A program made the translations under genes and the position numbers. Below the pieces are notes generated by a model. That model did no database searches and was not told the DNA's origin. It was given only the letters and a program-made list of their open reading frames with translations. 64,000 bases of DNA, from NCBI RefSeq assembly GCF_019668465.1, contig NZ_AP024828.1, positions 2,976,001-3,040,000 on the forward strand, read 5' to 3'. The number at the start of each line of letters is the position of its first letter. The stretch's first letter is position 1. Below, in pieces: positions 20,986-63,294 of the stretch. The DNA is from Mycobacterium senriense. Its GTDB lineage: Bacteria; Actinomycetota; Actinomycetes; Mycobacteriales; Mycobacteriaceae.

Positions 20986-20988
20986 GCT

Positions 20989-30921: not shown

Positions 30922-30948
30922 GTTACCCGCTTGGGTAGATTGGCCACG

Positions 30949-31599: not shown

Positions 31600-31619
31600 C
31601 GCTCGTGCGCAGCCGGCGT

Positions 31620-32237: not shown

Positions 32238-32310
32238 CCGTTCGATCGCGTGCGGCGCGCGACGGGGCGTGTGGCGCGACCCCGCGGGCCGGCGCCGCTA
32301 CGGTTGAGCT

Positions 32311-33525: not shown

Positions 33526-33529
33526 CTAG

Positions 33530-35125: not shown

Positions 35126-35150
35126 CGGTGTCGATCGTAGGCTGTCGGTC

Positions 35151-35987: not shown

Positions 35988-35997
35988 GGCCGCGCGG

Positions 35998-37248: not shown

Positions 37249-37301
37249 AGCCCTAGCTTGACAGAGCGGCGGCGTTTCGCACCGGCGGTGCCCGGCCGGG
37301 C

Positions 37302-41439: not shown

Positions 41440-41636
41440 TCCGTCGCGGTGCGGCGCTGGCCGCCACCTTGTCGTAAGTCCCGATCGAACGGCCGGTGCG
41501 TGATACCGTTTTTAGACGTATTTCGGCCGCGTCGCCGCGCGGTTCGAAGTTCGGCCAGCAAACAAGCGAGCGAACTATCGGACCCCTTCGATGGGTATTC
41601 GGAAGGGTCGCCGAGTGTGCCCGTATCGGAGGACCC

Positions 41637-44627: not shown

Positions 44628-46307
44628 ATGGTACGGACGATTCGACAACAACATATCCTTATCGTCGGCGTATGCATGGCGCTGGTGCTGAGTGGATGCA
44701 GTCGTGGCCGTGACCTCGGGCCCCTGAACGCGATTGCCAGTCCGGCCATCCCGATGGCCATGCAGGACGTATCGAACCCGCTGCGCGGCCAGTACGAAGA
44801 TCTCCTGCAACCGCTTTTCCCGCAAGGAAATCGCGCGCAGCAGCGTTACCCGGCATGGCCCGCATCCTACGATGCAAGTCTGCGCGTGCCGTGGCGGCAG
44901 TTGCAGCCCACCGATCCGAGCACACTGCCGCCGGACGCCCCCGACGACCGCAGGTTCGATTTCAGCGTGATCGATGACGCGCTGGCCAAGCTGGGCAGTC
45001 GCAACATGCGGCTGACTCTGCGCGTGGTCGCCTATAACTCCTGTTGCGACAACACCTATGCGAACAACACGAACATCGCCATGCCTGACTGGATGCGCTC
45101 CGTGGCCACCAATTACACCGGTCCGCAACGCTATTGGTGGACGCCTGGTGTGACGCAGGTCGTTCCGAACTGGAATGACCCGAATTACCTCAACGCATTC
45201 GGTCAGCTGTTGGGCGCGCTGGGCCGCCGCTATGACGGCGACGAGCGACTGAGTGTCTTCGAGTTCTCCGGTTACGGTGATTTCAGCGAGAACCACATCT
45301 CGTATCTGCGTGACACGTTGGGCGCGCCCGGACCGGCACCTGACGAGAGCGTCGCGAAGCTGGGTTATTACAGCCAGTTTCGTGACCAGAGCATCACCGC
45401 CGGATCCATTCGGCAGCTGGTCACAGCGACCGTAAATGCCTTCCCCCATACGCAATTGGTGACGACGGCGCTGAATCCGGAGATCGTGCGTCAGTTGCTC
45501 GCCGACGACGTCACGAAGAAACTTTCCGCGCCGGTGGGGATCCGTGCGGATTGCCTTGGGGTCCAGGCGCCGTTGCCCGCATGGGCAGACAAAGACGGCT
45601 CGCACTATGTGGAGTCGAAGGATCCGCTGGTCAGCGCGCTGAAGAGCCGGATGGCCTCGGCTTTGGTGATCACCGAATGGTGCCAGCTGCCCGACGGGAC
45701 CGATCCACGGACCTATTACGAAAAGGGTCTGTACGACGTCGTCAAGTACCACGTGTCGATGACATCGAGTTACAACTTTCCGGCCGTGGATTCCACCACG
45801 CCGATGGATCCTGCGCTGTACCTGCTGTGGGCCCATGCCAACGTTGTCGCCGGATACCGATATTCGGTCGAGGCGGGGCAGGGGTCGCAGTCAGTGCGCG
45901 ACGGAAAGGCGACGCTGACCGTCACGTGGACGAATTTCGGCGCCGCCGCGGCAACCGAGAACTGGGTCCCGGGCTACCGGCTGGTCGATTTCTCGGGGGC
46001 GGTGATCCGTTCGATTCCCGCGACGGTGGCGCTCAAGTCGCTGATCGGAGGGCAACTCGGAGACGGCTCCCGCAAGGAACCCGTTCCGACGTCGTCCACT
46101 GAGTCCATTCATTTCGACTTGGCGGGCTTGGCGCCGGGGCACTACACGCTGTGCGCCTCGGTGGACTGGCAACAGCACAAGCCGGGTGCGTCGCATGTGG
46201 TGAACTATCCGCCCATGCGGCTGGCCCGCGACGGACGCGACGGCTCCGGGTGCTATCCCTTAGCGACGCTCGACCTGCCGCGCGACGCGCCGACCCATGC
46301 CACCTGA
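44628..46307 (+). CDS. DUF4832/glycosidase-like lipoprotein, copy 2
   Basis: 559 residues from the ATG before VRTIRQQHILIVGVCMALVL; the lipobox is LSGC. It is colinear with copy 1 over almost the whole length: VSNPLRGQYEDL, PLFPQGNRAQQRYPAWPASY, VFEFSGYGDFSENH, ALVITEWCQLP and the same C-terminal beta domain ending NYPPMRLARDGRDGSG. The high similarity indicates a duplication. It is the first gene of the long forward-strand polysaccharide run, so an extracytoplasmic glycan role is likely. Confidence 0.72.
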   Translation: MVRTIRQQHILIVGVCMALVLSGCSRGRDLGPLNAIASPAIPMAMQDVSNPLRGQYEDLLQPLFPQGNRAQQRYPAWPASYDASLRVPWRQLQPTDPSTLPPDAPDDRRFDFSVIDDALAKLGSRNMRLTLRVVAYNSCCDNTYANNTNIAMPDWMRSVATNYTGPQRYWWTPGVTQVVPNWNDPNYLNAFGQLLGALGRRYDGDERLSVFEFSGYGDFSENHISYLRDTLGAPGPAPDESVAKLGYYSQFRDQSITAGSIRQLVTATVNAFPHTQLVTTALNPEIVRQLLADDVTKKLSAPVGIRADCLGVQAPLPAWADKDGSHYVESKDPLVSALKSRMASALVITEWCQLPDGTDPRTYYEKGLYDVVKYHVSMTSSYNFPAVDSTTPMDPALYLLWAHANVVAGYRYSVEAGQGSQSVRDGKATLTVTWTNFGAAAATENWVPGYRLVDFSGAVIRSIPATVALKSLIGGQLGDGSRKEPVPTSSTESIHFDLAGLAPGHYTLCASVDWQQHKPGASHVVNYPPMRLARDGRDGSGCYPLATLDLPRDAPTHAT

Positions 46308-46498
46308 TACTGCACAGCCGGTATGCCACTCCGCTTGCCGGTTTTGGCGGCGGCACCGGACCTGCTCGCCGGCACCACTGCGATTTCGGCAATGGCCGCG
46401 TGATGATGCTGCATAATCTGCAGTGGATATGCGTGGCCGGTGCCGGGAAATCTGATGACGCCATTCGCGTCATAAGCTTCTAGAAAGGTTATTAGCCG

Positions 46499-47962
46499 AT
46501 GGATTTCCGTACCTTCGTCCGGATACTCGGCACGCACTGGAAGCTCGCCATCACCGCGCTGCTGGCCTGCACGATCGGCGCCGCGTTCGTAACGGCGTTG
46601 CAGACGAAGCACTATCAATCTTCGGCCACGGTCCTCATCTCGTTTTCGGGTGCGACTGATCTGAATGAGCTATACAGCGGCACGGAGGCTGCACAAGAAC
46701 GGTTGTCGTCATACGCCCAAATCGCAGGCGGACACATCGTGGCCGAGCGCGCAATACGTCAGCTCCAGCTTTCGACAAGCGCCGATGATCTGCTGAGCCA
46801 AACCCAAGTGAAATACACTCCGAAATCGGTGCTCTTCACGATCAGCGTCAAGGACACCGATCCCGCGCGCGCCGCCGCGCTGGCGGGTGCCATGGCCAAT
46901 CAGTTCAGCGCGATCCTTCCCACCCTCAATCCGGCTTCGGGTCCGACCGGTGCCGGTGAACGGGTAACCGCTGGACCGCGGCCCGAGGGCGTTGAGATAA
47001 CCCCGCCGTCGGGCCAGCCCTCGGACATGCCGGCCTCCGCACAGCCCACGGGCAAACCGATACCGGCGGCCCGGGCGACAGTGGTCGAGCCGCCCCGCGT
47101 GCCGAGAGTTCCCGTTTCTCCGGTGCCGATGCGAAACATGGTGATCGGGTTTGTCGCCGGGGTGCTCCTTGCTATCGCGGTCGCGCTGACCCGCGAGGCC
47201 GGCGATCGCACCATCCGCACCCGCGAGAAGCTCGAAGGAGTCTCGGGGCTGCCGACTTTGGCGGAGCTGCCCGGAAAGCGCGGCACGGTTCCGCGGTTCG
47301 GCACCGACACCGCATCCGACGATGCCGTGCGCGGCATGCGCACCCGGTTGCTCAGGGCGATCGGACCGGATGCCCGCCGGGTGCTGGTGACCGGGCCGTT
47401 CGGCGGTGAAGGCGCGACAACCACGGCGATGAACCTTGCGCTCGCCCTCGCCGAAATGGGTGAAGACACATTGCTTGTCGAGGGCGACAGCCGCCGACAC
47501 GTGCTCGCCGGATTGCTGAGGGTCGAATCAGGCGAGGGGCTGGGCAACGCATTGGCCAACCCCGACATCGCCGCCGAAGCCGTCAAGCCGACGCCGATTT
47601 CAAGGTTGTTCATCCTGGCGTCCCGGTCCGCGCGCCGCGAAAGTTTGCCTGTCAGTGGCTATTTGCCGGAAGTGATCGACCGCGTCCTACAGGAGCTGTC
47701 GTCACGCTTCGATCGGATCGTCGTCGACGGCCCGCCGGTCCTCGCCACGGCCGACGCCGGCCTGCTGGGCGGCGCCGTCAACGCGACGGTGGTAGTGGTG
47801 CGGGCGCGGCGCACCACCGCCGACGAACTCAAGGACGCGCTGACCGCCCTGCGCTCGGCCGGGGCGCAAGTTGTCGGCACCGTACTCATCGACGCGCGTC
47901 AGTCGCTGCACATCAGGGCGGCCGACCGCGCCTACCGGTCAAAGGCCAGCGGGTCGGCGTGA
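46499..47962 (+). CDS. Wzz/BY-kinase-like chain-length protein with altered P-loop
   Basis: 487 residues. Wzz-type part: first helix about 13-33 (WKLAITALLACTIGAAFVTA), periplasmic domain, Pro-rich linker and second helix about 212-232. The cytoplasmic ATPase part follows. Its P-loop reads GPFGGEGATTTAMN, with Ala306 where tyrosine autokinases have the invariant Lys (GEGKST). The A' motif is VEGDSRR and the B motif is RIVVDGPPVLATADA. There is no Tyr-rich tail, only one Tyr near the end. It probably sets polymer length with Wzy but may lack kinase activity. It overlaps the wzy gene by four bases. Confidence 0.87.
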   Translation: MDFRTFVRILGTHWKLAITALLACTIGAAFVTALQTKHYQSSATVLISFSGATDLNELYSGTEAAQERLSSYAQIAGGHIVAERAIRQLQLSTSADDLLSQTQVKYTPKSVLFTISVKDTDPARAAALAGAMANQFSAILPTLNPASGPTGAGERVTAGPRPEGVEITPPSGQPSDMPASAQPTGKPIPAARATVVEPPRVPRVPVSPVPMRNMVIGFVAGVLLAIAVALTREAGDRTIRTREKLEGVSGLPTLAELPGKRGTVPRFGTDTASDDAVRGMRTRLLRAIGPDARRVLVTGPFGGEGATTTAMNLALALAEMGEDTLLVEGDSRRHVLAGLLRVESGEGLGNALANPDIAAEAVKPTPISRLFILASRSARRESLPVSGYLPEVIDRVLQELSSRFDRIVVDGPPVLATADAGLLGGAVNATVVVVRARRTTADELKDALTALRSAGAQVVGTVLIDARQSLHIRAADRAYRSKASGSA

Positions 47963-49461
47963 ATCTGTACCTGCGGGCTCGTCCCCGCCTGGCGGTGGAC
48001 GGAACCCTGCTCGCGATCTTCGTGTTCGGGTGCTTTGTGTTCGGTGTGCTCTCGGTGCGCCGAACCACCGAGGGAGTGCTGCTGACCGCCGCGTTGTTCT
48101 GCGTGGTCGTGTACTGGGTGAAGCCCGAAGGAATGGTGGCGGTCACGCTGTTCGGGGCCTTCGCGGCACTGCCAGAAGGATTGCACGTCGGCAAAGTCAT
48201 TGGCCCCGTGACGATTTACGCATACCACGTGGCCGCGGTGCTTGCCATTTGTTATCTGATCCCATCCGCGAGACCGCGATCGTACGATTTCGTGTTGCCG
48301 GGGCTTTTGGTGCTCACGGTGGCGTGGTCCACCATCACCGGTTTCGAAACCGGACACGCTGCCCTCGTAGTGATGCGTGAATCGTCGAGCATGATCGAGA
48401 TGGCCATCGGATTCATGTTGGCGCTACTCGTTGTCTACGCCGGCCACGTCAAATTCTCGATCCGGGTGATGATTGTGATCCTGTGGTTTTCGGCGGGTAT
48501 GGCGATTGTGAGTTCGCTGTCTGCCATCCGGCTGGCCGGCCGGTCGGAAAGCCTGGAAGGGACCACGGGCGCCGGCCAGGCCGTGCGCATCATCCTGTCC
48601 ACCCAAACGCCGGCAACCGCCATCCTGTCCGCGCTGGTCGCCGCGCCGATCGTCGGGCGCGTCAGGCCCGCAATGTATCTCGCGTTGGGCCCACCGGCGC
48701 TGAGCATTTCGCTGTTGTCCTTCTCCCGCAACACGCTGATCTCGATGGGGGTGGCGGCCGGGGTAGCGCTACTCGGGAGCTTGAGCTGGGCCGCGATTCG
48801 GCGCACGGTCGCGGCCGCTGCGGTCGGCTTGGCCATGATCGCCGTGACGGTGCCGGGATCGCTGTTTTTGTTGCAACGCTCGAAGACCGGGGCGTGGCTC
48901 AGCGATCAGTACGCCGCCTTCAATCAGCGCGTGCTGGGCGGGGTGTCGTCAAGCGCGCTCGCCATTGACGATTCGGCACTGGAACGACTGCGCGAAATCA
49001 ACCTGCTCAAGGAGACCATCGCTCGCGCCCCGGTGTTCGGGCACGGACTCGGCTACGTGTATCAACCGCCTACCGGCGACGACGAGTTCCATCTCTACTT
49101 GTATCCCGCCTATTCCCACAACTTCTACCTCTGGTGGTTGGCCAAGGCCGGAGCCGTGGGCATGGCGGTGTTCGCGCTATTCGCGCTCACGCCGGTCATA
49201 TTGGCGCTGCGATGCGCGCCGGGGCCCGCGAAAATCAGCGCGGCGGTCGCCGCCGGCCTCCTGGCGATATCCGCCGTGTGGCCGTTGCCGGAAATGCCGA
49301 TGGACGCACTGGGACTCGGTCTGGCCCTCGGCGCGGCAATGGGGTACGCGGGTCTGCGGCGCAGAAACAGTGACGGTGGCCGGGGAGATGTCAGCCCTGC
49401 GCCGGCCCCGACGTCCGGCTCGACCGCACATGCCAATGTCGGCCTCGCCACGTCCAGCTGA
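47959..49461 (+). CDS. Wzy-like O-antigen polymerase/ligase
   Basis: 500 residues from a GTG overlapping the previous stop. Roughly 11-12 hydrophobic helices are visible, with a large extracytoplasmic loop between about residues 290 and 380. The loop and helix after it include LKETIARAPVFGHGLGYVYQ, the wzy-C style glycine motif, and YPAYSHNFYLWWLAKAGAVG with the H-N-Y-L pattern of polymerases and ligases. It likely joins repeat units of the polysaccharide on the outer face of the membrane. Confidence 0.88.
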   Translation: MNLYLRARPRLAVDGTLLAIFVFGCFVFGVLSVRRTTEGVLLTAALFCVVVYWVKPEGMVAVTLFGAFAALPEGLHVGKVIGPVTIYAYHVAAVLAICYLIPSARPRSYDFVLPGLLVLTVAWSTITGFETGHAALVVMRESSSMIEMAIGFMLALLVVYAGHVKFSIRVMIVILWFSAGMAIVSSLSAIRLAGRSESLEGTTGAGQAVRIILSTQTPATAILSALVAAPIVGRVRPAMYLALGPPALSISLLSFSRNTLISMGVAAGVALLGSLSWAAIRRTVAAAAVGLAMIAVTVPGSLFLLQRSKTGAWLSDQYAAFNQRVLGGVSSSALAIDDSALERLREINLLKETIARAPVFGHGLGYVYQPPTGDDEFHLYLYPAYSHNFYLWWLAKAGAVGMAVFALFALTPVILALRCAPGPAKISAAVAAGLLAISAVWPLPEMPMDALGLGLALGAAMGYAGLRRRNSDGGRGDVSPAPAPTSGSTAHANVGLATSS

Positions 49462-49547
49462 TTCGTGGGGGTGCGGCCGGTGCTGACCATCTACTTCTTC
49501 GCACACACCTGCCACTCGTGGGTGCGCGGATCCGCCACGGGCCGAAC

Positions 49548-50564: not shown

Positions 50565-51507
50565 ACTTCAGGGGCCGCGATTGTCGGTCAGCGCAATCGG
50601 TTTCGGATGCGGCTCGTTGATGCAGTCGCCCTCCCGCAAGGAGCGCATGGCCGTGCTCGCCAGCGCAATGGCGGGCGGCATCACCCATTTCGACACCGCG
50701 CGAATGTACGGCCTGGGTATGGCAGAGGCAGAGCTTGGAACGTTCTTACGCACGGTCGAGCGCGACACCGTGACCATCGCTACGAAATTCGGCATCGATG
50801 TCGGCGGCGCGGCGCGGCGCCTCGCCCGGTTCCAAAGTCCGGCAAGAGCATTGCTCCGCAAAGCCCCTGCGCTCCGCGCGACCGTCAAGCGACGCCATGC
50901 CCCGCCCACCACCGTCCGGCTCTACGATGCGGCCGTCGCGGCTCGCAGCCTCGACCAGAGCCTTGCGGCGCTCGGTGTCGACTATGTCGACATCCTGTTC
51001 GTTCACGCCCCCCGGCCCGGTGACACGCTGGTCAGTGATGAACTCCGCGCGTTCTTCGAACGCGCTCGCCGACAGGGCAAGATTCTCGCCTGGGGGGTAT
51101 CCCAGGATGAGGGGCTGGACGTTGATTTCTCCCGAGCTTTCGCACCCGAGGGAGTGAGTCAGCTTCGCAGCGATCTCCTCGATCCGTCACCTCGACCCGC
51201 CCACCTCGCCTTCGGTGTCCTGAGTGGTCCGCACCGAAGACTCTCGGGGGCGTTGCAGGCGGACCCGATGTTGGCGGGACGCTGGCGCGAGGCCCTGCAG
51301 ACCGACCCCCTGGCTCCCGGCGTGCTTGCCACACTGATCCTCGGATCATCCGCCGCCGCAACGGGTTGTCAGGCAATCCTTTACAGCAGCACCAGGCCCC
51401 AACGGGTCACCGAGGCCGCGGCCGCCGTCTTGTCGCCGCCGGACGCGGAGACCGTGACGCGGTTCCTCGCTCTAGTCAAGGAGTTTCGCGACGGGGCTGC
51501 CGCATGA
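50536..51507 (+). CDS. Aldo/keto reductase-family enzyme
   Basis: 323 residues from an ATG inside the end of the glycosyltransferase gene (a GTG at 50545 is also possible). FGCGSLMQSPSRKERMAVLA and GGITHFDTARMYGLGMAEAE carry the catalytic Asp-Tyr region, and GVDYVDILFVHAPRPGD the His region. The fold is an NAD(P)-dependent TIM barrel. It is coupled by ATGA to the GMC oxidoreductase, so both may alter one sugar or its precursor. Substrate unknown. Confidence 0.85.
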   Translation: MRAVALHRVELQGPRLSVSAIGFGCGSLMQSPSRKERMAVLASAMAGGITHFDTARMYGLGMAEAELGTFLRTVERDTVTIATKFGIDVGGAARRLARFQSPARALLRKAPALRATVKRRHAPPTTVRLYDAAVAARSLDQSLAALGVDYVDILFVHAPRPGDTLVSDELRAFFERARRQGKILAWGVSQDEGLDVDFSRAFAPEGVSQLRSDLLDPSPRPAHLAFGVLSGPHRRLSGALQADPMLAGRWREALQTDPLAPGVLATLILGSSAAATGCQAILYSSTRPQRVTEAAAAVLSPPDAETVTRFLALVKEFRDGAAA

Positions 51508-53213
51508 TCCGGCGCATGGCCGACTTCACGTCCGATATGACGATCGAGACCGACGTCGCAGTCGTCGGGGCCGGTCCGATCGGTATCGCGACGGCGCTCG
51601 AACTTGCGCGGGCGGGCGTGCAGGTGACGCTCATCGAAAGCGGCCTCGAGCGCAGTGACCGTGCGGCGCAGAAGTTGTCGAGTTTCGACTCTCGCCAGGA
51701 CGACTACTTCCATTCAGGCAGTGAGCTCACGGTCCGCCGGCAAGTCGGTGGAACCTCGGCGCTCTGGGGTGGGCGCTGTGTCAAGTTCGACCTCATCGAT
51801 TTCGAGGCTCGACCCATCACCGCACAGGCGCCCTGGCCCATCGGGCATGACGATGTCGAGCCGTATCTTCAACGCGCCTGCGATTACGCGGTATGCGGCC
51901 GGGCGGCATTCAATGCGCGTGACATCCCTGAAATTGCGGATCGCGACATGATCGTTGGACTTCCCGACGGCCAGGTGCGCACGACAGACCTCGAACGCTG
52001 GTCCCTGCCAACACGTTTCGGGCGCAAATACCGCACCGCATTGCGGGAGACGTCCGGCCTGACGCTGTGGACCGGCCTGACCTGCACCGAAATCGTGACC
52101 GTGCCGGCCGGTGAGCGCGTTGATCACCTCGTGGTCAAGGCGCGCGACGGCCGGCAGGGGAGGGTGGTCGCAGCGGACTACGTCATCGCGACCGGCGGTT
52201 TGGAGGCCACCCGTCTGCTGCTGACGTCGGACCGCCATCACCCCGCGGGGCTGGGGAATGCGGGCGGCCACCTGGGACGGTGGTACATGGCTCACGTCGA
52301 AGGCCGAGTGGCGCGGGTGCACTTCACCACGGATCAGGTCCTCTACGCGTATGAAAGAGACAGCGAGGGGGTCTACGTTCGCCGGCGCTTCACCTTCGAT
52401 CCGCACCTGTTACGCGAGTCCGGAATGCCCAACGCCGCAGTTTGGTTGGTGAATCCGCCGATCAGCGACCCGGGCCACGGGAGCGGGATCCTGTCCGGCG
52501 TCTACCTGACCCTCATCTCCCCACTCGGCCGGTTCCTGCTCGCCGGAGCCATTCGTGAGGCGCACACCAGGACCGTTGGGTCGCCGCAGATCGTCGCGCA
52601 CCTGCGCAACGTTGCGCGAGACCTGCTCCCCTCGATCCGGTTCGCGATCGCCTTCTGCTACGCCCGGTTCCTGCGCAGGGGCAGGAAAGCTCCGGGATTT
52701 TTCGTGAAGAGCGCCGACAATCGCTACCTACTCCAATACCACGGCGAGCATCTCCCGCATTGGGAGAGCCGTGTCGAGCTGACCGACGAGCGGGATGCGC
52801 TGGGTATGAGGCGTATTCGCACCCACATGCACTTCTCCGAAGCGGATTACCAGAGCGTGCGCAAGGCCATCGTCGCGGTCGACGAGCATCTTCGTCGCCA
52901 CGGTGTGGGCTACGTGGAGTGGCTGAGCGACGATGTCGAGGGCTCGGTGCGCGCGTTCATGGAGAAGCGAACCGGGTACCACCAGGCGGGAACGACCAGG
53001 ATGTCGAACTCGCCGCAGGACGGCGTCGTGGACTCCCAGCTGCAGGTACACGGGGTGTGCGGGCTGTACATTGCGAGCACGTCGGTGCTGCCGACGTCTG
53101 GCCAAGCCAACCCGACGCTCGTCGGGATGGCGTTGGGGGTCCGGCTCGCCCGGCGTCTTGCTGACGCTCGAAGGGAATGCGGCGCAACCGGTCTCGGGAT
53201 ACCCGGGTATTGA
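51504..53213 (+). CDS. GMC-family FAD-dependent oxidoreductase
   Basis: 569 residues. FAD-binding ETDVAVVGAGPIGIATALEL, then QVGGTSALWGGRCVKFD, and C-terminal YHQAGTTRMSNSPQDGVVDS with the active-site His and TSVLPTSGQANPTLVGMALG. This is the GMC pattern, which includes glucose and pyranose oxidases and polyol dehydrogenases. In this cluster it most likely oxidises a sugar hydroxyl. It is the last gene of the forward run and is translationally coupled to the aldo/keto reductase. Confidence 0.88.
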   Translation: MIRRMADFTSDMTIETDVAVVGAGPIGIATALELARAGVQVTLIESGLERSDRAAQKLSSFDSRQDDYFHSGSELTVRRQVGGTSALWGGRCVKFDLIDFEARPITAQAPWPIGHDDVEPYLQRACDYAVCGRAAFNARDIPEIADRDMIVGLPDGQVRTTDLERWSLPTRFGRKYRTALRETSGLTLWTGLTCTEIVTVPAGERVDHLVVKARDGRQGRVVAADYVIATGGLEATRLLLTSDRHHPAGLGNAGGHLGRWYMAHVEGRVARVHFTTDQVLYAYERDSEGVYVRRRFTFDPHLLRESGMPNAAVWLVNPPISDPGHGSGILSGVYLTLISPLGRFLLAGAIREAHTRTVGSPQIVAHLRNVARDLLPSIRFAIAFCYARFLRRGRKAPGFFVKSADNRYLLQYHGEHLPHWESRVELTDERDALGMRRIRTHMHFSEADYQSVRKAIVAVDEHLRRHGVGYVEWLSDDVEGSVRAFMEKRTGYHQAGTTRMSNSPQDGVVDSQLQVHGVCGLYIASTSVLPTSGQANPTLVGMALGVRLARRLADARRECGATGLGIPGY

Positions 53214-53242
53214 CGGTGCATGCGCTGCACCCGGCGCAGGTA

Positions 53243-55706: not shown

Positions 55707-56174
55707 ATGGGGGAGGACATGGGCCGCCTGCTCCTCATCGCGTCCTCCGGCGGCCACATCTACGAAATGTTTTGCCTGCGGGAGTTTTGGCAGGACAAGG
55801 ATCGGTTTTGGGTGAGTTTTCCAACCGCGGACGCCCAGTACCTGCTGCGCGACGAGGAGGATATTCATTGGGCGGCGCACCCCACCGTCCGGAATGTTCC
55901 CAACCTCATGCGCAATTTGGTGCTGGCACTGCGGCTCCTGATCCACCACCGGCCCGCGATGATCCTGACCACAGGTTCGGGCGTGGCCGCCCCCTTCCTC
56001 TGGCTGGCCTGGCTGCTGCGGATCCCCACCGTCTTCGTGGAGTCGATCACCCGCATCACCGAGCTCTCCCTCACCGCCCGGATGGTGAAGCCTTTTGCCA
56101 CCCGGTTTTTGGTGCAGTGGCCCGAGCTGGTCGACCGCATTCCCCGCACGGAATACCACGGGAGGATCGTGTGA
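55707..56174 (+). CDS. PssD/Alg14-like glycosyltransferase subunit
   Basis: 155 residues with the Alg14 start GRLLLIASSGGHIYEMFCLR, TTGSGVAAPFLWLAWLLRIP and FVESITRITELSLTARM. Alg14-type proteins anchor the catalytic Alg13-type partner at the membrane. The partner follows directly with a GTGA overlap. The pair resembles PssD-PssE or EpsE-EpsF of bacterial capsule loci and adds a second sugar to the lipid-linked primer. Confidence 0.9.
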   Translation: MGEDMGRLLLIASSGGHIYEMFCLREFWQDKDRFWVSFPTADAQYLLRDEEDIHWAAHPTVRNVPNLMRNLVLALRLLIHHRPAMILTTGSGVAAPFLWLAWLLRIPTVFVESITRITELSLTARMVKPFATRFLVQWPELVDRIPRTEYHGRIV

Positions 56175-56656
56175 TCTTCGTGATCATGGGGATGGAGGTG
56201 CACCCCTTCGACAGGCTGGCGCGCACAGTCGACGAGATGGCCCGGGCGGGCACCACCGGGGAGGACTTTTTCGTGCAGCTCGGAACCTGCGGCTACGAGC
56301 CACGGCATGCCCGGTTCAAGCGCTTCCTGTCCTTCGGGGATGTCTGCGAACAGATACGGTCGGCGTCCGTGGCCGTCACTCACGCCGGCGCCGGGTCCAC
56401 CTTGCTCTGCATCGAACAGGGGAAGCATCCGGTGATGGTCCCTCGTCGATCGCGGCTCGGCGAGCACGTCGACGAGCACCAGCTGCCGTTCGCCGAGAAG
56501 TTGGAGGCAGGCGGGCTGGCCACCGTGGTCCGAGAAATGGAGGAGCTACCGGCAGCGATCGAGGCGACGCGTTCTCGGACGGCCCCGGCCGATGCGCTGG
56601 GCCGGGCGCGTGAGCTGACGGGGTGGCTGGAGACCTTCTGGCGCGGGCTCGGCTGA
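56171..56656 (+). CDS. PssE/Alg13-like glycosyltransferase catalytic subunit
   Basis: 161 residues from a GTG overlapping the pssD stop. IFVIMGMEVHPFDRLARTVD, VTHAGAGSTLLCIEQGKHPV and VPRRSRLGEHVDEHQLPFAE are the Alg13/MurG-type C-terminal donor-binding motifs. The usual start of the family reads FVTVGTxxxPFDRL; here MGMEVHPFDRL is a close match. It works with the preceding Alg14-like protein. Confidence 0.9.
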   Translation: MIFVIMGMEVHPFDRLARTVDEMARAGTTGEDFFVQLGTCGYEPRHARFKRFLSFGDVCEQIRSASVAVTHAGAGSTLLCIEQGKHPVMVPRRSRLGEHVDEHQLPFAEKLEAGGLATVVREMEELPAAIEATRSRTAPADALGRARELTGWLETFWRGLG

Positions 56657-56665
56657 GCCGCCGCG

Positions 56666-57724
56666 TCAGCGCTGACGAGCCACCACCTGTGCGATGACCT
56701 GTAACAAGCGCTCCGCGACCAGATCGACCGAGCATCGCCGCGCATAGTAACGCGCGGCCTCGGCCCCTTTCGCCGCCGCTATCTCCGGATCCGCCAATGC
56801 ATCGAATGTGGCTGCGAGCCGGTCAATGTCGTCGATGCCGACCGGGACGCAGCCCGGTGGTTGGTACTCGGGCAGGGCGCCGGCGGTGGACACGATCGGC
56901 ATGACGCCCAACTGCATGGAGAGCACTTGCACGCCGCTTTGTGAGGCGCGCCGATAGTGGGCGATCGAACCTTTCGCGGCGGCCAGCGCCGGGATGACAT
57001 CGGCGTAGCGGAAGCTGCCGTTGCGCCAGCGCGTGTGCTTGGGCAGGGCGGCCGCGTCCAACGGTCCGTTGCCGATGAGCACCAGGCTGTCCCCACGCCA
57101 GCCGCCCCCGATCACATGTCGCCGCCAGGCTTCTAGCACGACGTCGACGTTCTTATACGGGTTGAGGCGGCCGAACATCACAAAGTCACGACGCCCTTCG
57201 GGCCCCACGAACGGCGGAAGTCTGTCCAGGTCGAGGTCGCTGGCCAACGGCACGACATGCACAGGAGTGCCCGCGATGTCACGCCGCGCGGTGACGGCGG
57301 CCGCGACATACTCGCTGTAGGTGACCGTCGCCGCCGAACCGGCGCCCCAGCGGTCGAATACCGCACGCTCGTACGCCGGCGTCAGTTCGTCGGGATCGTG
57401 TGGTCGGTCGTCGTGCACCACCTGGATGCGGGGGTCTCGTCCCGCCAGCGCGATCCAGCGCGGATCCCGGACCAGTTCGGCGATCACGACGTCAGGCCGG
57501 TACTCGCGGACGCGGCGCCAGGCCTTGAAAGTCGGCAGCCAGGTCGCGGCCGTGCGAAACCGCGGGTCGAGCACCAACTCGTAATCACGTGCGGCATCGG
57601 ACTCGGGGTGCTGATCGGAGGTCACCAACAGTACCTCGGCGCCATGTCGCAGCAGCGCTTCGGCCTGCACACGTACCGCCGGCCGTGTCCACGGCGAAAG
57701 CCAAAGCACACGAGGCGAACTCAC
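56666..57724 (-). CDS. Glycosyltransferase (GT4/GT1-like)
   Basis: 352 residues from a GTG overlapping the stop of the upstream gene. The donor-domain features are FVMFGRLNPYKNVDVVLEAW, LVLIGNGPLDAAALPKH and SQSGVQVLSMQLGVMPIVST. The N-terminal half (SSPRVLWLSPWTRPAVRVQA) is a weakly conserved acceptor domain. The E-x7-E motif is not clear, so the family is approximate. It belongs to the reverse operon of rmlC-like, sugar transferase, wzx and the GT fusion. Confidence 0.82.
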   Translation of the reverse strand: MSSPRVLWLSPWTRPAVRVQAEALLRHGAEVLLVTSDQHPESDAARDYELVLDPRFRTAATWLPTFKAWRRVREYRPDVVIAELVRDPRWIALAGRDPRIQVVHDDRPHDPDELTPAYERAVFDRWGAGSAATVTYSEYVAAAVTARRDIAGTPVHVVPLASDLDLDRLPPFVGPEGRRDFVMFGRLNPYKNVDVVLEAWRRHVIGGGWRGDSLVLIGNGPLDAAALPKHTRWRNGSFRYADVIPALAAAKGSIAHYRRASQSGVQVLSMQLGVMPIVSTAGALPEYQPPGCVPVGIDDIDRLAATFDALADPEIAAAKGAEAARYYARRCSVDLVAERLLQVIAQVVARQR

Positions 57725-59682
57725 AGCACAGCTCCGATCGCATCGAGGTAGGCATCGGCCATTGCCTGCACCGTGTAGTGCTTGCGCATGCGCTCGTAGC
57801 CACGGCGTCCAACCGGTGGCAGTGCGCCCGGGTCCGCCAGGATCCGGGCGAGCTCTTCTCGCCAGCCCGAAGCCGACACGGGTTCGACGAGGAATCCGGC
57901 CGTGCCGAAATCCAACATTTCGGGGACGGCGCAAACCGCCGAGGCCGCAACCGGTATCGCCCGCGACATCGCCTCGAGGATCACCACCGGGAAGGCCTCG
58001 GAGCGGCTCGGAACGCAGAGTAGATCCGCGTCGGCCAGCGCAGGCTCGGGGCCCGCCGACCATCCGCGCCACTGAACCCGCTCGCCCAATTCGGGAGGCG
58101 TACCCGCCTGCAGCCTCTCCCGATCGGGTCCGTCACCGAAAATCGATAACTTCCAGGGCATCTCGGCAAGCCCACGCAGCGCTTCGATCAACAGATGGGG
58201 GTTCTTGTGCTCGACGATGCGGGACAGCATCACCAGGTGCAGTGGCTCGCCTGCACTGCGGTGCCGAAGGACGGGTTCCCCGATGGCGGCGACGCCGTTG
58301 GGTGCGATGAATCGCCTTCCCGAGAGCCGATGCTGCGCGAGCAGCATATCCCAATGCCGTTGCGCCAAAACGATAAAGCCGTCGGCACGCCGCATCGCGG
58401 ACGTCAGTGGCCGGGAGTAGATGGGCGCGTCCTCCTCGGGGGGAACATGCGGAGCAATCAACCAGCGTCGATTTCGACCGCTCGCGCGCCACAAACTACC
58501 GAATCCCACCTCGGTGTTGGTGTCGCCGGTGACAACCACCGCCGGGCCCTTCGGGATGTCAACGACCGGAGCCCACCAGGGCTGGCGCATCACGCGCACG
58601 GCATGAGCAATCTCCGAGATCAACGGGCCGAGCCGCTGAACGCAGACGACGACGACCGGAAAGCCGCGTCGGTCTAATTCCGTTGCCAATAACGCTTTTT
58701 GTCGCTCGGCCCCGCCGTAGACCAGGCGGTTGGTGGTGATCACGATCGTGGGTAGGTCCGTACTCCGGCGGTCCCGAGCGACCCGGCGCGCAATCCGTTT
58801 TGGCCTTTGAAGCCGGTCCAGCACGGTGGTGCCGGCCAGATACGCGTCAGCGTGATGAACGCTGCGTTGATGTTCGAGCAGCAGCGCGGTGTTGGTGCGC
58901 CGCAGGTCCTGATTGCGGCGGGATTTGTCGCTTTGGCCGGGCGCGGTGGCGCGTTCAGCACCGAGTTCGTCGGCCAGCAAGACGCGCCAGCCTGCGGCGC
59001 GCGCCCGGGCCTGCCAGTCGGCGGCCTCGCCGTAACCGAAGAATTCTTCGTCGAAGCCGCCGATGGCGTTCCACGCAGCGCGGTTGATCGCCAGACAGGC
59101 GGGGCTCAAATCACCTTCCAGGCCGTGTGTTTCGGAAGGCTGGTGAGCATACAACGGTGAGATCGGTGCGTGACGGAGCGAGCCGGAGTAGCCGGCAGCG
59201 GCGATGAGAGACCGCACCAGTGTCGGTCGCCGGGTAGCGATGTCCCATGGCGCCCGACCGGGCGCGCGCACCATTGGTGAAACCGCCGCCACCTTGGGCT
59301 GGCGAAGTAACTCCCGGGTGCGGGTGAGTGGTCCCAGCACGCGAACGTCGGCGGCGAGTAACAACAGATCGGAGTCGGCGGGCGTTTGGTCCACCAGCGC
59401 GTTGCATGCCTGTGCGAAACCAACGTTTGCCGATCCCGACACCCAATGCGCCGCAGGGCATTTCGCGGCCAGTTCGACACACCCCGGATCCTGCTGATCG
59501 CTGTCCGCGTAGATGTACACCGGCAGCGCAGGCAAATGTTCGGCGATACTGGCTAAACAGCCCTGCAGCGATTCGTGGTTGCGACGGCTTACGATCACCA
59601 CCGCGAGCGAGCGCGCGGCAGGCAGGTCCGGCGGGTCGCCGGTCGTACGTTTCAGATACGCCCGATCTGATTCGCGCTTCAT
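57721..59682 (-). CDS. Two-domain GT2-GT4 glycosyltransferase fusion
   Basis: 653 residues. Residues about 25-285 form a GT2-type domain (SLAVVIVSRRNHESLQGCLA, NVGFAQACNALVDQT and INRAAWNAIGGFDEEFFGYG, as in rhamnosyl and N-acetylglucosaminyl transferases). From about 310 a GT4 domain follows, with RLVYGGAERQKALLATELDR, LVMLSRIVEHKNPHLLIEAL and VPSRSEAFPVVILEAMSRA including E-x7-E. Both parts look complete, so one polypeptide could add two sugars in sequence. The upstream flippase and downstream transferase genes overlap it by four bases. Confidence 0.88.
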   Translation of the reverse strand: MKRESDRAYLKRTTGDPPDLPAARSLAVVIVSRRNHESLQGCLASIAEHLPALPVYIYADSDQQDPGCVELAAKCPAAHWVSGSANVGFAQACNALVDQTPADSDLLLLAADVRVLGPLTRTRELLRQPKVAAVSPMVRAPGRAPWDIATRRPTLVRSLIAAAGYSGSLRHAPISPLYAHQPSETHGLEGDLSPACLAINRAAWNAIGGFDEEFFGYGEAADWQARARAAGWRVLLADELGAERATAPGQSDKSRRNQDLRRTNTALLLEHQRSVHHADAYLAGTTVLDRLQRPKRIARRVARDRRSTDLPTIVITTNRLVYGGAERQKALLATELDRRGFPVVVVCVQRLGPLISEIAHAVRVMRQPWWAPVVDIPKGPAVVVTGDTNTEVGFGSLWRASGRNRRWLIAPHVPPEEDAPIYSRPLTSAMRRADGFIVLAQRHWDMLLAQHRLSGRRFIAPNGVAAIGEPVLRHRSAGEPLHLVMLSRIVEHKNPHLLIEALRGLAEMPWKLSIFGDGPDRERLQAGTPPELGERVQWRGWSAGPEPALADADLLCVPSRSEAFPVVILEAMSRAIPVAASAVCAVPEMLDFGTAGFLVEPVSASGWREELARILADPGALPPVGRRGYERMRKHYTVQAMADAYLDAIGAVL

Positions 59683-61142
59683 GCCGGCAGCTGATTCCCG
59701 CGCAGCGAGGTCAAGTTCGACCAGCCGATCGGCCCCGCGATCGCGCTGGTGGCCAGATAGGCGGCAGCGGCGGCCATCAGCGTCACCACGACGTGGTGAC
59801 CCGAAAGCAGCAGTGTCACGGCAACACTCGCTGCCGTCGGGATCAGCAAGCGCAGCAAGAACATCACCGGCGTACGGTAGCCGCAGCGACGGCGCAACCA
59901 CCAGGTGCTGACCACCAAGTTGAAGAATTCCGTGCACACCAGCGCGACGCCCGGACCGACCGCCCCGTACCGTCCGGCGAGACTGAGATTGAGTGCGACG
60001 TTGAGCACCAGGGTGGCCATCGTCAACCAAAACAAGATCCGCTGATGATGACTGGCCACCAGGCCCTGGCCCAGGGTGCCGCCGACGAATCGCAACGCCG
60101 CCGCGACGAACAGCAACGCCAGCGTCGGCGTGCCGCGATGGACGAACGCGTTGTCGCCGAAGAACGCGATCAGCGATCCGGCCAGCAGCGCACCGACCGT
60201 TGCGACCGGCACCGCCACGAAGCACATCAGCTCTACGCTTCGGCGTAGAAAGCCCGCGAAAGCGGCGACGTCACGCGAAAACAGCTCGGTGGCCGTCGAC
60301 AGCGTCGATTTGTGAAAGATCAGCGACACCACGATGGTGTTGAACGCGATCGTGAATGCCAGGCCGTAGACGCCCACTTCGGAATGCGTGCTCAACAAGG
60401 ACAGGATCACGCCGTCGGCGCGGCAGTACAGCAGACCGATCACCAGAAAGCCGATCAGCGGCAGGCTTTCCCGTAACAAGTCGGCCGCCTCTCGCGGCGC
60501 GAAGATCGGGCGGACCGAGATGTGCCGCGTGGCCGCGGCGCCCTGGATCAACAGCTGCACAGCGGGCGGGATCAGTTGCGCGACGGCGAACCAGATGACG
60601 CCCGACCGCATCGCAACCAGACAGGCGACCATTGCCAGGGTGCCCGTGCGGGCGGCGATGTCGGAGATGGCCACCGCGGAGAACCGGACGGTGGCCAGAA
60701 ATATCGGCTCGAAGCGCGTCACCATGGTCTGCATCAGCAGCGCTCCCGAGAGCACGACGAGCATGATCCGCACGTCCGAATCGTGATAGATGAGCAGGCC
60801 GGACACGGCGGCCAATACCGCCAGCGGGACGCAATAGATCAGGGCCAGGCCACTGTTGATGCGCACCAGGCGTTCCAAGTCGCCGCGGCCCGAGGTCACC
60901 CGGCGCACGATCACGGTCGCGATACCGAGATCGGCGAGGCTGGTCCACATGGCGATGAAGAGAACCGCGATGGAGAGTTGGCCGTAGCGTCCCGGTCCCA
61001 GATAGCGGGCGGTCATGGCCACCGAGACGACCGAGGCGAGCATGCCAACGGCGCGGCAGATCAGCTGGATCGAGAACGCATGAGCCATTCGCGTGAGTGG
61101 CACCGACGACACCACCGCGTCGGGTGCCGTCGGCTCGGTCAT
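59679..61142 (-). CDS. Wzx-like oligosaccharide flippase
   Basis: 487 residues with about 12-14 hydrophobic helices and the polysaccharide-transport layout: ARYLGPGRYGQLSIAVLFIA near the N-terminus, FLRRSVELMCFVAVPVATVG in the middle and AGRYGAVGPGVALVCTEFFN in the second half. Such MOP-family proteins flip undecaprenyl-linked repeat units. With the Wzy and Wzz-like genes it completes a Wzx/Wzy system. ATGA overlap with the GT fusion gene. Confidence 0.9.
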   Translation of the reverse strand: MTEPTAPDAVVSSVPLTRMAHAFSIQLICRAVGMLASVVSVAMTARYLGPGRYGQLSIAVLFIAMWTSLADLGIATVIVRRVTSGRGDLERLVRINSGLALIYCVPLAVLAAVSGLLIYHDSDVRIMLVVLSGALLMQTMVTRFEPIFLATVRFSAVAISDIAARTGTLAMVACLVAMRSGVIWFAVAQLIPPAVQLLIQGAAATRHISVRPIFAPREAADLLRESLPLIGFLVIGLLYCRADGVILSLLSTHSEVGVYGLAFTIAFNTIVVSLIFHKSTLSTATELFSRDVAAFAGFLRRSVELMCFVAVPVATVGALLAGSLIAFFGDNAFVHRGTPTLALLFVAAALRFVGGTLGQGLVASHHQRILFWLTMATLVLNVALNLSLAGRYGAVGPGVALVCTEFFNLVVSTWWLRRRCGYRTPVMFLLRLLIPTAASVAVTLLLSGHHVVVTLMAAAAAYLATSAIAGPIGWSNLTSLRGNQLPA

Positions 61143-61153
61143 GGCTCGCGAGC

Positions 61154-62737
61154 CTAGTAGGCTCCGTGGCTCGTTAGAACCGCTTTCACCGTCTTGGCGA
61201 CAATCACCAGATCACCCGACATCGACCAGTTGTCGACATACGACAGGTCCAGCCGCACCGACTCTTCCCAGGACAGGTCCGAACGGCCGCTCACTTGCCA
61301 CAATCCGCTGACGCCCGGCTTCACCAGCAGCCGCCGCTTGACGTCGGTTTCGTACTTGTCGACTTCCCGTCGCAACGGGGGCCGCGGCCCCACGACGCTC
61401 ATGTCTCCCTTGAGGACGTTGATGAATTGAGGCAGCTCGTCGATGCTGTAGCGGCGAAGAATCTTGCCGACGGGGGTGATCCGAGGGTCTTCGCGCATCT
61501 TGAACAGCATGCCGCCGGCGCACTCATTCATTGTCAGCAGGTGCTCGATCTGGGTGTCCGCCCCGTCAACCATGGTGCGGAACTTCAGCATCGTGAAGGG
61601 TTTTCCGTCGACGCCGATGCGCTCGGCCGGGTAGAAGACGGGCCCCCTGCTGGTCAGCTTGATGGCGATGGCGGCCGCAATGAGAATCGGTGCGGTGGCG
61701 ACCAGGGCTGCCAACGAGAACAAGAAGTCAAAGGCCTGCTTTTGAAAGCGGTGCGCCCCTTCGTATTGCGGCTTGTCGACATGCAGCAGAGGCAGGCCCG
61801 CGGTGAGGCGCAGGGTCAATCGCGCCTCGGTCACGTCCATGACGCCGGGCGACACGACCAGGTCGACGTTCATGGTCTCGAGCTGCCACATCAACTCCCT
61901 GATCCCGTGCATCCCAAAGCGATCCGTCTGGGTCAGCGCCACGGTGTCCGCGTCGCAGCGCGTGATCGCGGTAGCCGCGTGGGTCTGGTCGCCCAGGATC
62001 GGGATCTCGCGGCCCGCGATGGTCAGGCAGTTGCCGCGGTCCGGCCCGTAGCCGGGGATGCAGACACCGACCACGACGCAGCCGGCCAGCGGGTTGCGGG
62101 CCAGTTCGTGTGCGAGGTGGGTAACCGCCTGGCGGTCTCCGATGGCCAAAACGCGGGTCTGGTACTGGCCTTCGGCGCGCTTGCGGTTGACGTGCTTGCG
62201 CCACCCGCTGCGACTTCCCAGCAGCGCCAGGGTGCCGACGGGAAGCGCGATGGCCAGGTAGCCGCGGGCCAGGTCGACCTTGGCGAGCAGCGTCACCATC
62301 GCGATGATTCCGAATGTCCAAAACGATGCGGTGCCGATCCGGCGGTACTCCTCGATTCCCGCGCCGATCACTCGCGTTGAGCGCGTTTGGAATACCGCGA
62401 GGGCCGACAGCCACAGCACCGCGAAGAGGCAGGAGAACAGCGTCATCATCGGGTCCGAGTAACCCGATGTGTTCGCGATCTCGCCGAAGCGAACGTACTG
62501 GGCAAGCAACACCGAGGCGCAGACGATCACCGAGTCGCTGATGCGCAGGTTCTGCGAATAGTGGTCCTGCCAACGCCGTAAGACGCCGGCACCGGCCGAA
62601 GGCGCCGGACCCGCAGTGGTCGGCGAGCCATTGGTGTCGCCGCCATGCGACGTGGTCATGTTGGCGGGCCGGGTCTTCAGCGGTCGCCGGCGGGGCATGA
62701 CATGCTCCGTGTTGCGAATCATCACCGACTGATGCAT
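61154..62737 (-). CDS. Polyprenyl-phosphate sugar-1-phosphate transferase (WbaP/CpsE-like)
   Basis: 527 residues from the ATG before HQSVMIRNTEHVMPR. Four helices in the N-terminal part, a CoA-binding-like middle domain, one reentrant helix (FDFLFSLAALVATAPILIAA), then the catalytic part with MLKFRTMVDGADTQIEHLL and ELPQFINVLKGDMSVVGPRP. It starts repeat-unit synthesis by moving a hexose-1-phosphate to undecaprenyl phosphate. It overlaps the RmlC-like gene by 16 bp. The exact start is less certain than the domains. Confidence 0.92.
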   Translation of the reverse strand: MHQSVMIRNTEHVMPRRRPLKTRPANMTTSHGGDTNGSPTTAGPAPSAGAGVLRRWQDHYSQNLRISDSVIVCASVLLAQYVRFGEIANTSGYSDPMMTLFSCLFAVLWLSALAVFQTRSTRVIGAGIEEYRRIGTASFWTFGIIAMVTLLAKVDLARGYLAIALPVGTLALLGSRSGWRKHVNRKRAEGQYQTRVLAIGDRQAVTHLAHELARNPLAGCVVVGVCIPGYGPDRGNCLTIAGREIPILGDQTHAATAITRCDADTVALTQTDRFGMHGIRELMWQLETMNVDLVVSPGVMDVTEARLTLRLTAGLPLLHVDKPQYEGAHRFQKQAFDFLFSLAALVATAPILIAAAIAIKLTSRGPVFYPAERIGVDGKPFTMLKFRTMVDGADTQIEHLLTMNECAGGMLFKMREDPRITPVGKILRRYSIDELPQFINVLKGDMSVVGPRPPLRREVDKYETDVKRRLLVKPGVSGLWQVSGRSDLSWEESVRLDLSYVDNWSMSGDLVIVAKTVKAVLTSHGAY

Positions 62738-63294
62738 GTTGCCACCTGCTCCACTGGTACCAATCTGGGTTTGCGTGCGGGCCAGCTCGCGTCCTGCTCG
62801 GAGATGACCGTGACCGGTATGGGCCACGAGATGCCGAATTCGGGGTCGTCCCAGCGGATCCCCTGCTGGTCGGCCAGCGTGTGGTCCCCGCTGATCTGGT
62901 AGCTGACTTCGGTGTTGTCGACCTGCGTCTGGAACCCGTGGGCGACATAGGGCGGCAAGTACAGCGTCCGGTGGTCGTCGGCGTTCAGCCCGACCATGAC
63001 GTGGTCGCCATAGGTCAGCGAGTCGGGGCGGACGTCGACCGCGACGGCGGCGATGGCACCGCGGGTACAGCGGACCAGCATGGCCTCGGCGTGTGGCGGC
63101 ACCTGTCGGTACAGACCACGCACGGTGCCGCGGGTGTAGTTGAAGACGATATTCGTCTGCGTGACATCGAAATTCAGTCCGTGATTGGCGAAGTCCCGGG
63201 CGCAGAACGAGCGTGAGGAATACCCGCGATGGTCGCGATGGAGCTCGAGGTCGATGATTGTCACTCCGGCGACCTTGGTGGGCGTGTACTTCAC
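62722..63294 (-). CDS. RmlC-like cupin with altered catalytic His
   Basis: 190 residues, the size of dTDP-4-keto-6-deoxyglucose 3,5-epimerases. FNYTRGTVRGLYRQVPPHAE aligns to the RmlC stretch RG-LRGLHFQ-PP, but Tyr62 replaces the catalytic His. AIAAVAVDVRPDSLTYGDHV and LYLPPYVAHGFQTQVDNTEV are normal. The Asp and the PP-AHG motif remain. It may be a 3- or 5-epimerase variant, a ketoisomerase or a non-catalytic relative. It heads the reverse operon that continues with the sugar transferase. Confidence 0.82.
   Translation of the reverse strand: MKYTPTKVAGVTIIDLELHRDHRGYSSRSFCARDFANHGLNFDVTQTNIVFNYTRGTVRGLYRQVPPHAEAMLVRCTRGAIAAVAVDVRPDSLTYGDHVMVGLNADDHRTLYLPPYVAHGFQTQVDNTEVSYQISGDHTLADQQGIRWDDPEFGISWPIPVTVISEQDASWPARKPRLVPVEQVATCISR

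What the first reader, a model, noticed from the sequence alone, without database searches (positions are those of the whole stretch)
44628..63294. Apparently complete Wzx/Wzy polysaccharide locus in a Mycobacterium
In one window I see an initiating sugar-phosphate transferase, PssD/PssE-like transferases, GT4 enzymes, a GT2-GT4 fusion, a flippase, a polymerase and a Wzz-like protein, with oxidoreductases and an RmlC-like enzyme. Such Wzx/Wzy pathways are well described in other bacteria, but I know of no well-characterised one in mycobacteria. There is no outer-membrane exporter of the Wza type, so passage across the mycomembrane would need another route.
Basis: partly seen in the sequence, partly recalled or inferred. 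Interest (0 to 1): 0.8.

Follow-up and report, generated by a model that had tools for sequence, protein, structure and literature searches.

The report
Mycobacterial surface-polysaccharide (Wzx/Wzy) gene locus
A mycobacterium close to Mycobacterium colombiense carries a complete, intact set of genes for building and flipping out a repeating-sugar polymer, shared in modular form by other mycobacterial species; it gives a concrete gene set with which to test how mycobacteria could make polysaccharide coats and biofilm matrix.

Summary
Every gene type named is present and open: initiating transferase (PHPT), flippase (Wzx), GT2-GT4 fusion, GT4s, PssD/PssE, polymerase (Wzy_C), Wzz-like co-polymerase, oxidoreductases, RmlC-like protein. 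The genome has one PHPT and one Wzy_C match, both here, and no Wza match. The nearest named flippases are about 94% identical (M. colombiense and an unclassified Mycobacterium). Strong flippase orthologues occur in 57 of 198 genus genomes sampled; all 44 with a strong Wzy are among them. Locus genes are under purifying selection, and synonymous divergence rises in the middle, as in exchanged capsule loci. Best reading: a Wzx/Wzy heteropolysaccharide locus, a new variant of a known kind. Product and export route are unknown. My paper searches (open-access library, listed rows) showed no characterised mycobacterial example.

The parts
38210..39391 (-). FAD/NAD-dependent oxidoreductase (Pyr_redox_2), called NOX here; left boundary gene of the chromosomal site
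   Evidence: Pfam; about 0.1 kb from metS in three Wzx-less genomes
39766..41439 (+). glycoside-hydrolase-fold lipoprotein, copy 1 (LSGC lipobox read by eye); Gln at the E350 position
   Evidence: 69% identical to copy 2; Gln also in five relatives
41496..43499 (+). GAF-GGDEF-EAL c-di-GMP enzyme; GGDEF, EAL and DDFGTG motifs present
   Evidence: Pfam; motifs; 1.1-2.1 kb from a lipoprotein gene in 43 genomes
43522..44316 (-). FkbM-type methyltransferase
   Evidence: Pfam
44628..46307 (+). glycoside-hydrolase-fold lipoprotein, copy 2, both Glu kept
   Evidence: AlphaFold2 model pLDDT 81; Foldseek and VIA matches; alignment
46499..47962 (+). Wzz-like co-polymerase fused to a BY-kinase-type domain whose Walker-A Lys is replaced
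47959..49461 (+). Wzy-type polymerase (Wzy_C / O-antigen ligase superfamily), about 12 hydrophobic segments
   Evidence: only PF04932 match in the genome
49518..50564 (+). GT4 glycosyltransferase
   Evidence: Pfam
50581..51507 (+). aldo/keto reductase (start codon uncertain)
   Evidence: Pfam; dN/dS 0.13-0.17
51504..53213 (+). GMC oxidoreductase
   Evidence: Pfam
53243..54118 (-). conserved 291-aa protein without a Pfam match, next to MocA
   Evidence: 8000 of 8000 scored candidates match at E<=0.001; no Pfam at E<=1
54115..55239 (-). Gfo/Idh/MocA sugar dehydrogenase
   Evidence: Pfam
55707..56174 (+). PssD/Alg14-like glycosyltransferase subunit
56171..56656 (+). PssE/Alg13-like glycosyltransferase subunit (start codon uncertain)
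56666..57724 (-). GT4 glycosyltransferase (GT4b)
   Evidence: Pfam; order
57721..59682 (-). GT2-GT4 fusion glycosyltransferase
   Evidence: Pfam; order
59679..61142 (-). Wzx/MOP-family flippase, about 14 hydrophobic segments
61154..62737 (-). polyprenyl-phosphate hexose-1-phosphate transferase (PHPT; open frame to 62827, start codon uncertain)
   Evidence: Pfam; TIGR03025 423.6 bits over a cut-off of 295.6; WbaP E 1e-51; only PF02397 match in the genome
62722..63294 (-). RmlC-like protein; the His of the GLH motif is Tyr here

Best explanation
The locus encodes a Wzx/Wzy-dependent pathway for a secreted or surface heteropolysaccharide. The PHPT loads a hexose-1-phosphate on a polyprenyl carrier. 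PssD/E, the GT4s and the GT2-GT4 fusion extend it to a repeat unit, with sugars tailored by the locus's dehydrogenases and perhaps the FkbM methyltransferase. Wzx flips the unit. The Wzy_C protein polymerises it outside the membrane under a Wzz co-polymerase that probably no longer has a working kinase. Lipid-anchored hydrolase-fold proteins clip, release or hold the chains (copy 2 probably active, copy 1 perhaps binding only), and the neighbouring GGDEF-EAL enzyme probably ties production to c-di-GMP. A BcsB-like protein may guide the chain outwards. Shown by sequence: genes, open frames, order, co-occurrence, selection, motifs, predicted folds. Inferred: substrate sugars, polymerisation, c-di-GMP control, the roles of the hydrolase-fold proteins and of BcsB, and where the polymer ends up.
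For: Complete gene set. One PHPT and one Wzy_C in the genome, both here. Of 44 genomes with a strong Wzy, all have the Wzx: 35 within 4.4-17.6 kb, 8 on different contigs, 1 at 67 kb; in 41 of the 44 the PHPT lies within 2.4 kb of the Wzx. The order Wzx, GT2-GT4, GT4b on one strand is kept in 72 of 80 named loci; 6 of the 8 others are shorter than the full stretch. A different PF04932 protein is present where the close Wzy is missing (one locus tested, L143). dN/dS 0.06-0.32. Against G061 (L160/L077, M. colombiense E1334), dS is 0.10-0.14 for NOX, lipoprotein 1 and GGDEF-EAL, 0.37-0.67 for ten genes (FkbM, lipoprotein 2, GT4a, AKR, GMC, the 291-aa protein, MocA, PssE, GT4b, GT2-GT4), and 0.19-0.31 for Wzz, Wzy, PssD, Wzx, PHPT and RmlC: uneven, as in loci that recombine. 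Hydrolase fold. GGDEF-EAL beside a lipoprotein gene in 43 genomes.
Against: No product is known. The Wzz match is weak and its kinase degenerate. Wzy_C also covers WaaL-type ligases. No exporter for the mycomembrane was found. In G079, G162 and G081 no close PHPT lies beside the Wzx. G172 has a 39% Wzy match without a strong Wzx. The lipoprotein and GGDEF-EAL genes also occur without Wzx (G058, G059, G113, G195), so they are not dedicated to it. Foldseek TM-scores of the lipoprotein are low (0.23-0.40 in the first 22 rows). The BcsB-like gene is also in M. avium, whose name does not appear among the 120 best flippases.
Confidence: 0.78

Rival explanations
1. The Wzy_C protein is a ligase, and the locus makes a short oligosaccharide that is transferred to a lipid, protein or wall polymer (glycolipid or protein-glycosylation locus).
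For: PF04932 covers both ligases and polymerases. The Wzz kinase is degenerate. A protein mannosyltransferase gene lies about 3 kb left of NOX, though it is also beside the site in the 8 Wzx-less genomes examined.
Against: A Wzz-like protein overlaps it in the same operon and no second PF04932 protein is in the genome. A ligase would need neither co-polymerase nor hydrolases. No lipid-assembly genes among the proteins scanned.
Confidence: 0.14
2. It is part of a known mycobacterial glycolipid pathway (lipooligosaccharide or glycopeptidolipid).
For: The genus is rich in such glycolipids, whose loci also hold sugar-modifying and methyltransferase genes (recalled).
Against: No PKS, FadD, Pap, MmpL or NRPS genes among the proteins scanned. 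A flippase, polymerase and Wzz are not part of those pathways (recalled).
Confidence: 0.04
3. It is a decaying relic without product.
For: Walker-A Lys lost in Wzz; RmlC His lost in this clade; Glu lost in lipoprotein copy 1; two 3.3-Mb genomes hold only fragmentary lipoprotein matches, most of them with stops.
Against: Window frames are open; dN/dS 0.06-0.32; the Lys loss is shared by 16 of 16 Wzz sequences aligned, including ones 45-46% identical, so it is old and tolerated.
Confidence: 0.04

Closest known systems
Corynebacterium glutamicum cg0419-cg0438 wzx/wzy/wzz cluster (PMC7305114, passages read)
   Same: A Wzx/Wzy/Wzz cluster with glycosyltransferases in a mycolic-acid bacterium; deletion of cg0424 and then cg0420 lowered mannose and arabinose of surface polysaccharide.
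   Different: The passages do not establish the Wzx/Wzy product, and the authors tie these two genes to mannan and arabinomannan; orthology to the present locus was not tested here.
Actinoplanes missouriensis imp cluster with GimA/GimB, and wps clusters (PMC12691653, PMC13390465, passages read)
   Same: Actinobacterial Wzx/Wzy-type matrix polysaccharide cluster; gimB, one of two paralogous secreted glycoside hydrolase genes that degrade the matrix, lies beside the cluster.
   Different: GimA/B are GH5 with a galactose-binding-like domain and signal peptide; here the hydrolase-fold proteins are lipoproteins with only a DUF4832 trace (E 0.0088), and a c-di-GMP gene lies between them.
Pseudomonas aeruginosa PslG of the Psl locus (fold match; Psl biology recalled)
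   Same: EPS locus with a glycoside hydrolase of the same barrel type; link to c-di-GMP (recalled).
   Different: No Wza-type match here; identity to PslG about 10-11%, TM-score 0.31-0.40.
BcsB of bacterial cellulose synthase
   Same: Predicted fold of the neighbouring 682-aa protein: the 22 best Foldseek rows are all chains of cellulose synthase entries, most named BcsB.
   Different: No CelA/BcsA match in the genome (TIGR03030); the gene keeps company with Wzx/Wzy genes.
E. coli-type Wzc/Wza capsule export system
   Same: Co-polymerase fused to a BY-kinase-type domain (Wzc match).
   Different: Walker-A Lys lost; no Wza match in the genome.

Membership tests
Wzx/Wzy-dependent polysaccharide pathway | polyprenyl-phosphate sugar-1-phosphate transferase that starts the repeat unit | tested here: met
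   TIGR03025 423.6 bits over a cut-off of 295.6; PF02397 1.7e-67; the only match in the genome
Wzx/Wzy-dependent polysaccharide pathway | MOP-family flippase | tested here: met
   PF01943 69.3 bits over a cut-off of 28.2; about 14 hydrophobic segments
Wzx/Wzy-dependent polysaccharide pathway | Wzy polymerase | tested here: inconclusive
   PF04932 44.3 bits over 31.7, about 12 hydrophobic segments, 15 invariant charged residues in 35 sequences; polymerase and ligase share this family and the activity cannot be told here
Wzx/Wzy-dependent polysaccharide pathway | Wzz/PCP co-polymerase with two flanking TM helices | tested here: inconclusive
   PF02706 24.8 bits, under 25.5; hydrophobic segments at 16-34 and 213-231; C-terminal part matches BceF and Wzc
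Wzx/Wzy-dependent polysaccharide pathway | repeat-unit polymer made | not testable with these tools
   needs glycan analysis
BY-kinase (Wzc/CapB) | Walker A GK[ST] for ATP binding | tested here: not met
   Lys replaced by A, T or S in 16 of 16 sequences aligned
Outer-membrane polysaccharide exporter (Wza) system | PF02563 protein in the genome | tested here: not met
   no match at E<=0.001; control rings in 4 of 14
RmlC dTDP-4-dehydrorhamnose 3,5-epimerase | catalytic His in the RGLH motif (role recalled) | tested here: not met
   Tyr in the window and 9 named loci; His in 59 of 69 aligned; NCBIfam rmlC 129.6 bits, under 155.8
Clan-A-type glycoside hydrolase (lipoproteins; clan rule recalled) | barrel fold with two conserved Glu at strand ends | tested here: inconclusive
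   model and fold matches for copy 2 with low TM-scores; E212 in 16 of 16, E350 in 15 of 16, copy 1 of the window being Gln; no activity known
BcsB | BcsB fold | tested here: met
BcsB | partner BcsA in the genome | tested here: not met
   TIGR03030 no match at E<=0.001 in own genome; control rings in 11 of 14, over the cut-off in 1
C. glutamicum cg0419-0438 cluster | orthologous Wzx and Wzy | not tested
   C. glutamicum rings in the PF02397 and PF04932 controls; orthology was not examined

The most novel reading that the evidence does not exclude
Mycobacteria of the M. colombiense/scrofulaceum/gordonae/interjectum/triplex groups make a previously unrecognised, c-di-GMP-linked, serotype-like capsular or biofilm polysaccharide by a hybrid machine: a Wzx/Wzy assembly line with a kinase-dead Wzz, a pair of lipid-anchored hydrolase-fold proteins of which one has turned into a binder, and a BcsB-like periplasmic guide that has been recruited from cellulose synthases (no BcsA) to carry a Wzy-made chain through the periplasm of a mycomembrane cell that has no Wza.
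Probability: 0.2. Interest if true: 0.88.

Novelty: new variant of a known kind. Interest (0 to 1): 0.63.

Why it matters
Two papers of which I read passages say that the machinery for extracellular polysaccharides of mycobacterial biofilms is not identified (PMC12167362; PMC6364259, which also notes putative cellulose synthase genes in M. neoaurum and M. cosmeticum). This locus is a concrete candidate in many nontuberculous species, with a natural comparison set: genomes with a full, partial or nearly empty version of the same chromosomal site. If it makes a variable surface polymer, it would matter for antigen typing, phage and host recognition, biofilms and drug tolerance, and for how any long sugar polymer crosses the mycomembrane.

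Tried and rejected
LOS/GPL membership: rejected for lack of lipid-assembly genes among the proteins scanned. Relic: rejected on dN/dS and open frames. Dedicated c-di-GMP/hydrolase module: weakened, since G058, G059, G113 and G195 have the pair without any listed Wzx match. CAZy family of the lipoproteins: Foldseek and VIA rows spread over several hydrolase families, so none is claimed. PDB sequence searches with the lipoprotein and the 291-aa protein found nothing; 1gtt for the BcsB-like protein (E 0.66) is chance. The AKR rows used a wrong frame or a stretch with a stop and are dropped; redone. The viral, metagenome, plasmid, phage and E. coli collections were not searched.

Paper searches on mycobacteri + Wzx/Wzy, exopolysaccharide + flippase, polyprenyl glycosylphosphotransferase, Mycolicibacterium + exopolysaccharide biosynthesis, Corynebacterium + Wzx/Wzy, M. 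colombiense + polysaccharide, BcsB, c-di-GMP, Wzy-dependent, nontuberculous showed no characterised mycobacterial Wzx/Wzy locus in the rows listed; several searches had more hits than were listed.


Full report
WHAT WAS CHECKED. The window is G000:C1:2976001-3040000 of a 5.83-Mb genome. The plus-strand genes run lipoprotein 2, Wzz-kinase, Wzy, GT4, AKR, GMC (44628-53213). The minus-strand genes run RmlC-like, PHPT, Wzx, GT2-GT4, GT4 (63294-56666), overlapping or a few bases apart. Between the two lie PssD/PssE (+) and MocA with a conserved 291-aa protein (-). Start codons of AKR, PssE and PHPT are uncertain. The genome holds one PF02397 and one PF04932 match, both here, and no PF02563 (Wza) match.

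SPECIES. The nearest named flippases are 94% identical and belong to M. colombiense and an unclassified Mycobacterium.

DISTRIBUTION. In a genus sample of 198 genomes (the window's own included), 72 have a flippase match and 57 a strong one (E below 1e-100). 55 have a Wzy match, 44 a strong one (E 3e-120 or less). All 44 strong-Wzy genomes have the strong Wzx: 35 within 4.4-17.6 kb, one 67 kb apart (G108), eight on different contigs. The next-best Wzy, 39% identical in G172, has no strong Wzx. The other 13 strong-Wzx genomes have flippases only 44-53% identical to the query and no strong Wzy; G196 has a 31% Wzy match about 3 kb from its Wzx, and one such locus (L143, Mycobacteroides sp. LB1) encodes its own PF04932 protein, so there the polymerase seems exchanged rather than lost. 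PHPT matches occur in 150 of 198; of the 44 best genomes 41 have it within 2.4 kb of the Wzx and 3 have no strong Wzx; conversely in G079, G162 and G081 no close PHPT lies beside the Wzx. The named scan (80 loci kept of 104) includes M. scrofulaceum, M. parascrofulaceum, M. europaeum, M. nebraskense, M. bohemicum, M. gordonae, M. asiaticum, M. interjectum, M. kyorinense, M. triplex, Mycobacteroides franklinii, Rhodococcoides, Tsukamurella and Aeromicrobium; M. decipiens appears. The order Wzx, GT2-GT4, GT4b on one strand is kept in 72 of the 80; the others are L099, L104, L108, L114, L130, L133, L141 and L151, six of them shorter than the full stretch.

INTEGRITY. No strong flippase row is marked with an internal stop; G045 is in two frames and G076 is matched over 1-431. 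Five of 44 strong Wzy rows have one TGA in the aligned stretch; in L051, L103 and L106 it lies opposite residue 468-469 of 500, behind the Wzy_C match (251-406); G001 and G143 were not placed. One PHPT row among the best 44 (G048) has a TAA, not placed. dN/dS of locus genes is 0.06-0.32 against L077, L085, L096, L091 and L160, the highest being Wzy against L091; the flanking NOX has 0.39.

MODULARITY. Between GT2-GT4 and GT4b some loci carry other genes, such as C-methyltransferases in L113 and L132. Against G061 (L160 and L077 are parts of one M. colombiense E1334 contig) dS is 0.10-0.14 for NOX, lipoprotein 1 and GGDEF-EAL; 0.37 and 0.42 for FkbM and lipoprotein 2; 0.19-0.22 for Wzz and Wzy; 0.43-0.67 for GT4a, AKR, GMC, the 291-aa protein, MocA, PssE, GT4b and GT2-GT4; 0.23 for PssD; 0.21-0.31 for RmlC, PHPT and Wzx. 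I take this unevenness as a sign of exchange between strains.

CHROMOSOMAL SITE. The locus lies between NOX (38210-39391) and metS (L002:16402-18690), 31 kb apart by their coordinates. I took the site in 8 Wzx-less genomes (of 12 searched for the flank). By match ends, NOX and metS are about 0.1 kb apart in G016, G073 and G150, 1.5-1.9 kb in G012 and G022, 2.3-2.6 kb with a lipoprotein gene in G105 and G161 (G161 also has a 59-residue GGDEF-EAL match), and 7.9 kb with GGDEF-EAL, lipoprotein and TetR in G058. Whether the locus was gained or lost is not settled. GC is 0.652 in 39766-63294 and 0.69 in 24000-39391.

DEGENERATE MOTIFS. In the Wzz-kinase the Walker-A Lys is A, T or S in 16 of 16 aligned sequences (15 named loci and the window; 4 shorter of 19 left out). 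The RmlC-like protein has RGLY instead of RGLH in 10 of 69 sequences: the window, L073-L077, L085, L095, L096 and L099. All but L099, too short to tell, carry the MocA/PssDE cassette; L080 has the cassette but no RmlC match. The catalytic role of the His is recalled.

LITERATURE. Passages seen: PMC7305114, PMC13390465 and PMC12691653, PMC12167362 (abstract and passages), PMC6364259. Others only as listings.

The dN/dS range, the Wzy stop codons, the Gln of copy 1, the circularity of the BcsB contrast and the TM-scores were added or mended after re-reading the calls; for the circularity the odds of the novel case were lowered from 0.22 to 0.20.

VERDICT. A genuine, intact, conserved and modular Wzx/Wzy locus: a known kind of pathway, unusual in its host, its probably dead Wzz kinase, and its hydrolase-fold, c-di-GMP and BcsB-like neighbours.

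Noticed in passing
L002:12711-14756 (C1:3042711-3044756, right of the window): BcsB-like protein in a genome without a CelA/BcsA match; close relatives lie by the Wzx in 25 sampled genomes (one more on another contig)
   Followed up: yes
L002:14770-15825: Polysaccharide deacetylase beside the BcsB-like gene, possible polymer-modifying enzyme
   Followed up: no
window 39766-41439: Lipoprotein copy 1 has Gln where copy 2 has a catalytic-type Glu; the same in five relatives
   Followed up: partly
window 62722-63294: RmlC-like protein with the motif His replaced by Tyr, tracking the MocA/PssDE cassette
   Followed up: partly
G075 and G115 (3.3-Mb genomes): Fragmentary lipoprotein-gene matches, most with stops, in two small mycobacterial genomes
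   Followed up: no
P0345: A 70% identical flippase in M. decipiens, recalled as a close relative of the tuberculosis complex
   Followed up: no
window 14114-24000: tRNA-Ala followed by several kb of lower GC (0.61-0.67), looks like an integrated element
   Followed up: no
window 33530-35326: Protein O-mannosyltransferase gene left of the site, next to an arginine deiminase gene
   Followed up: partly
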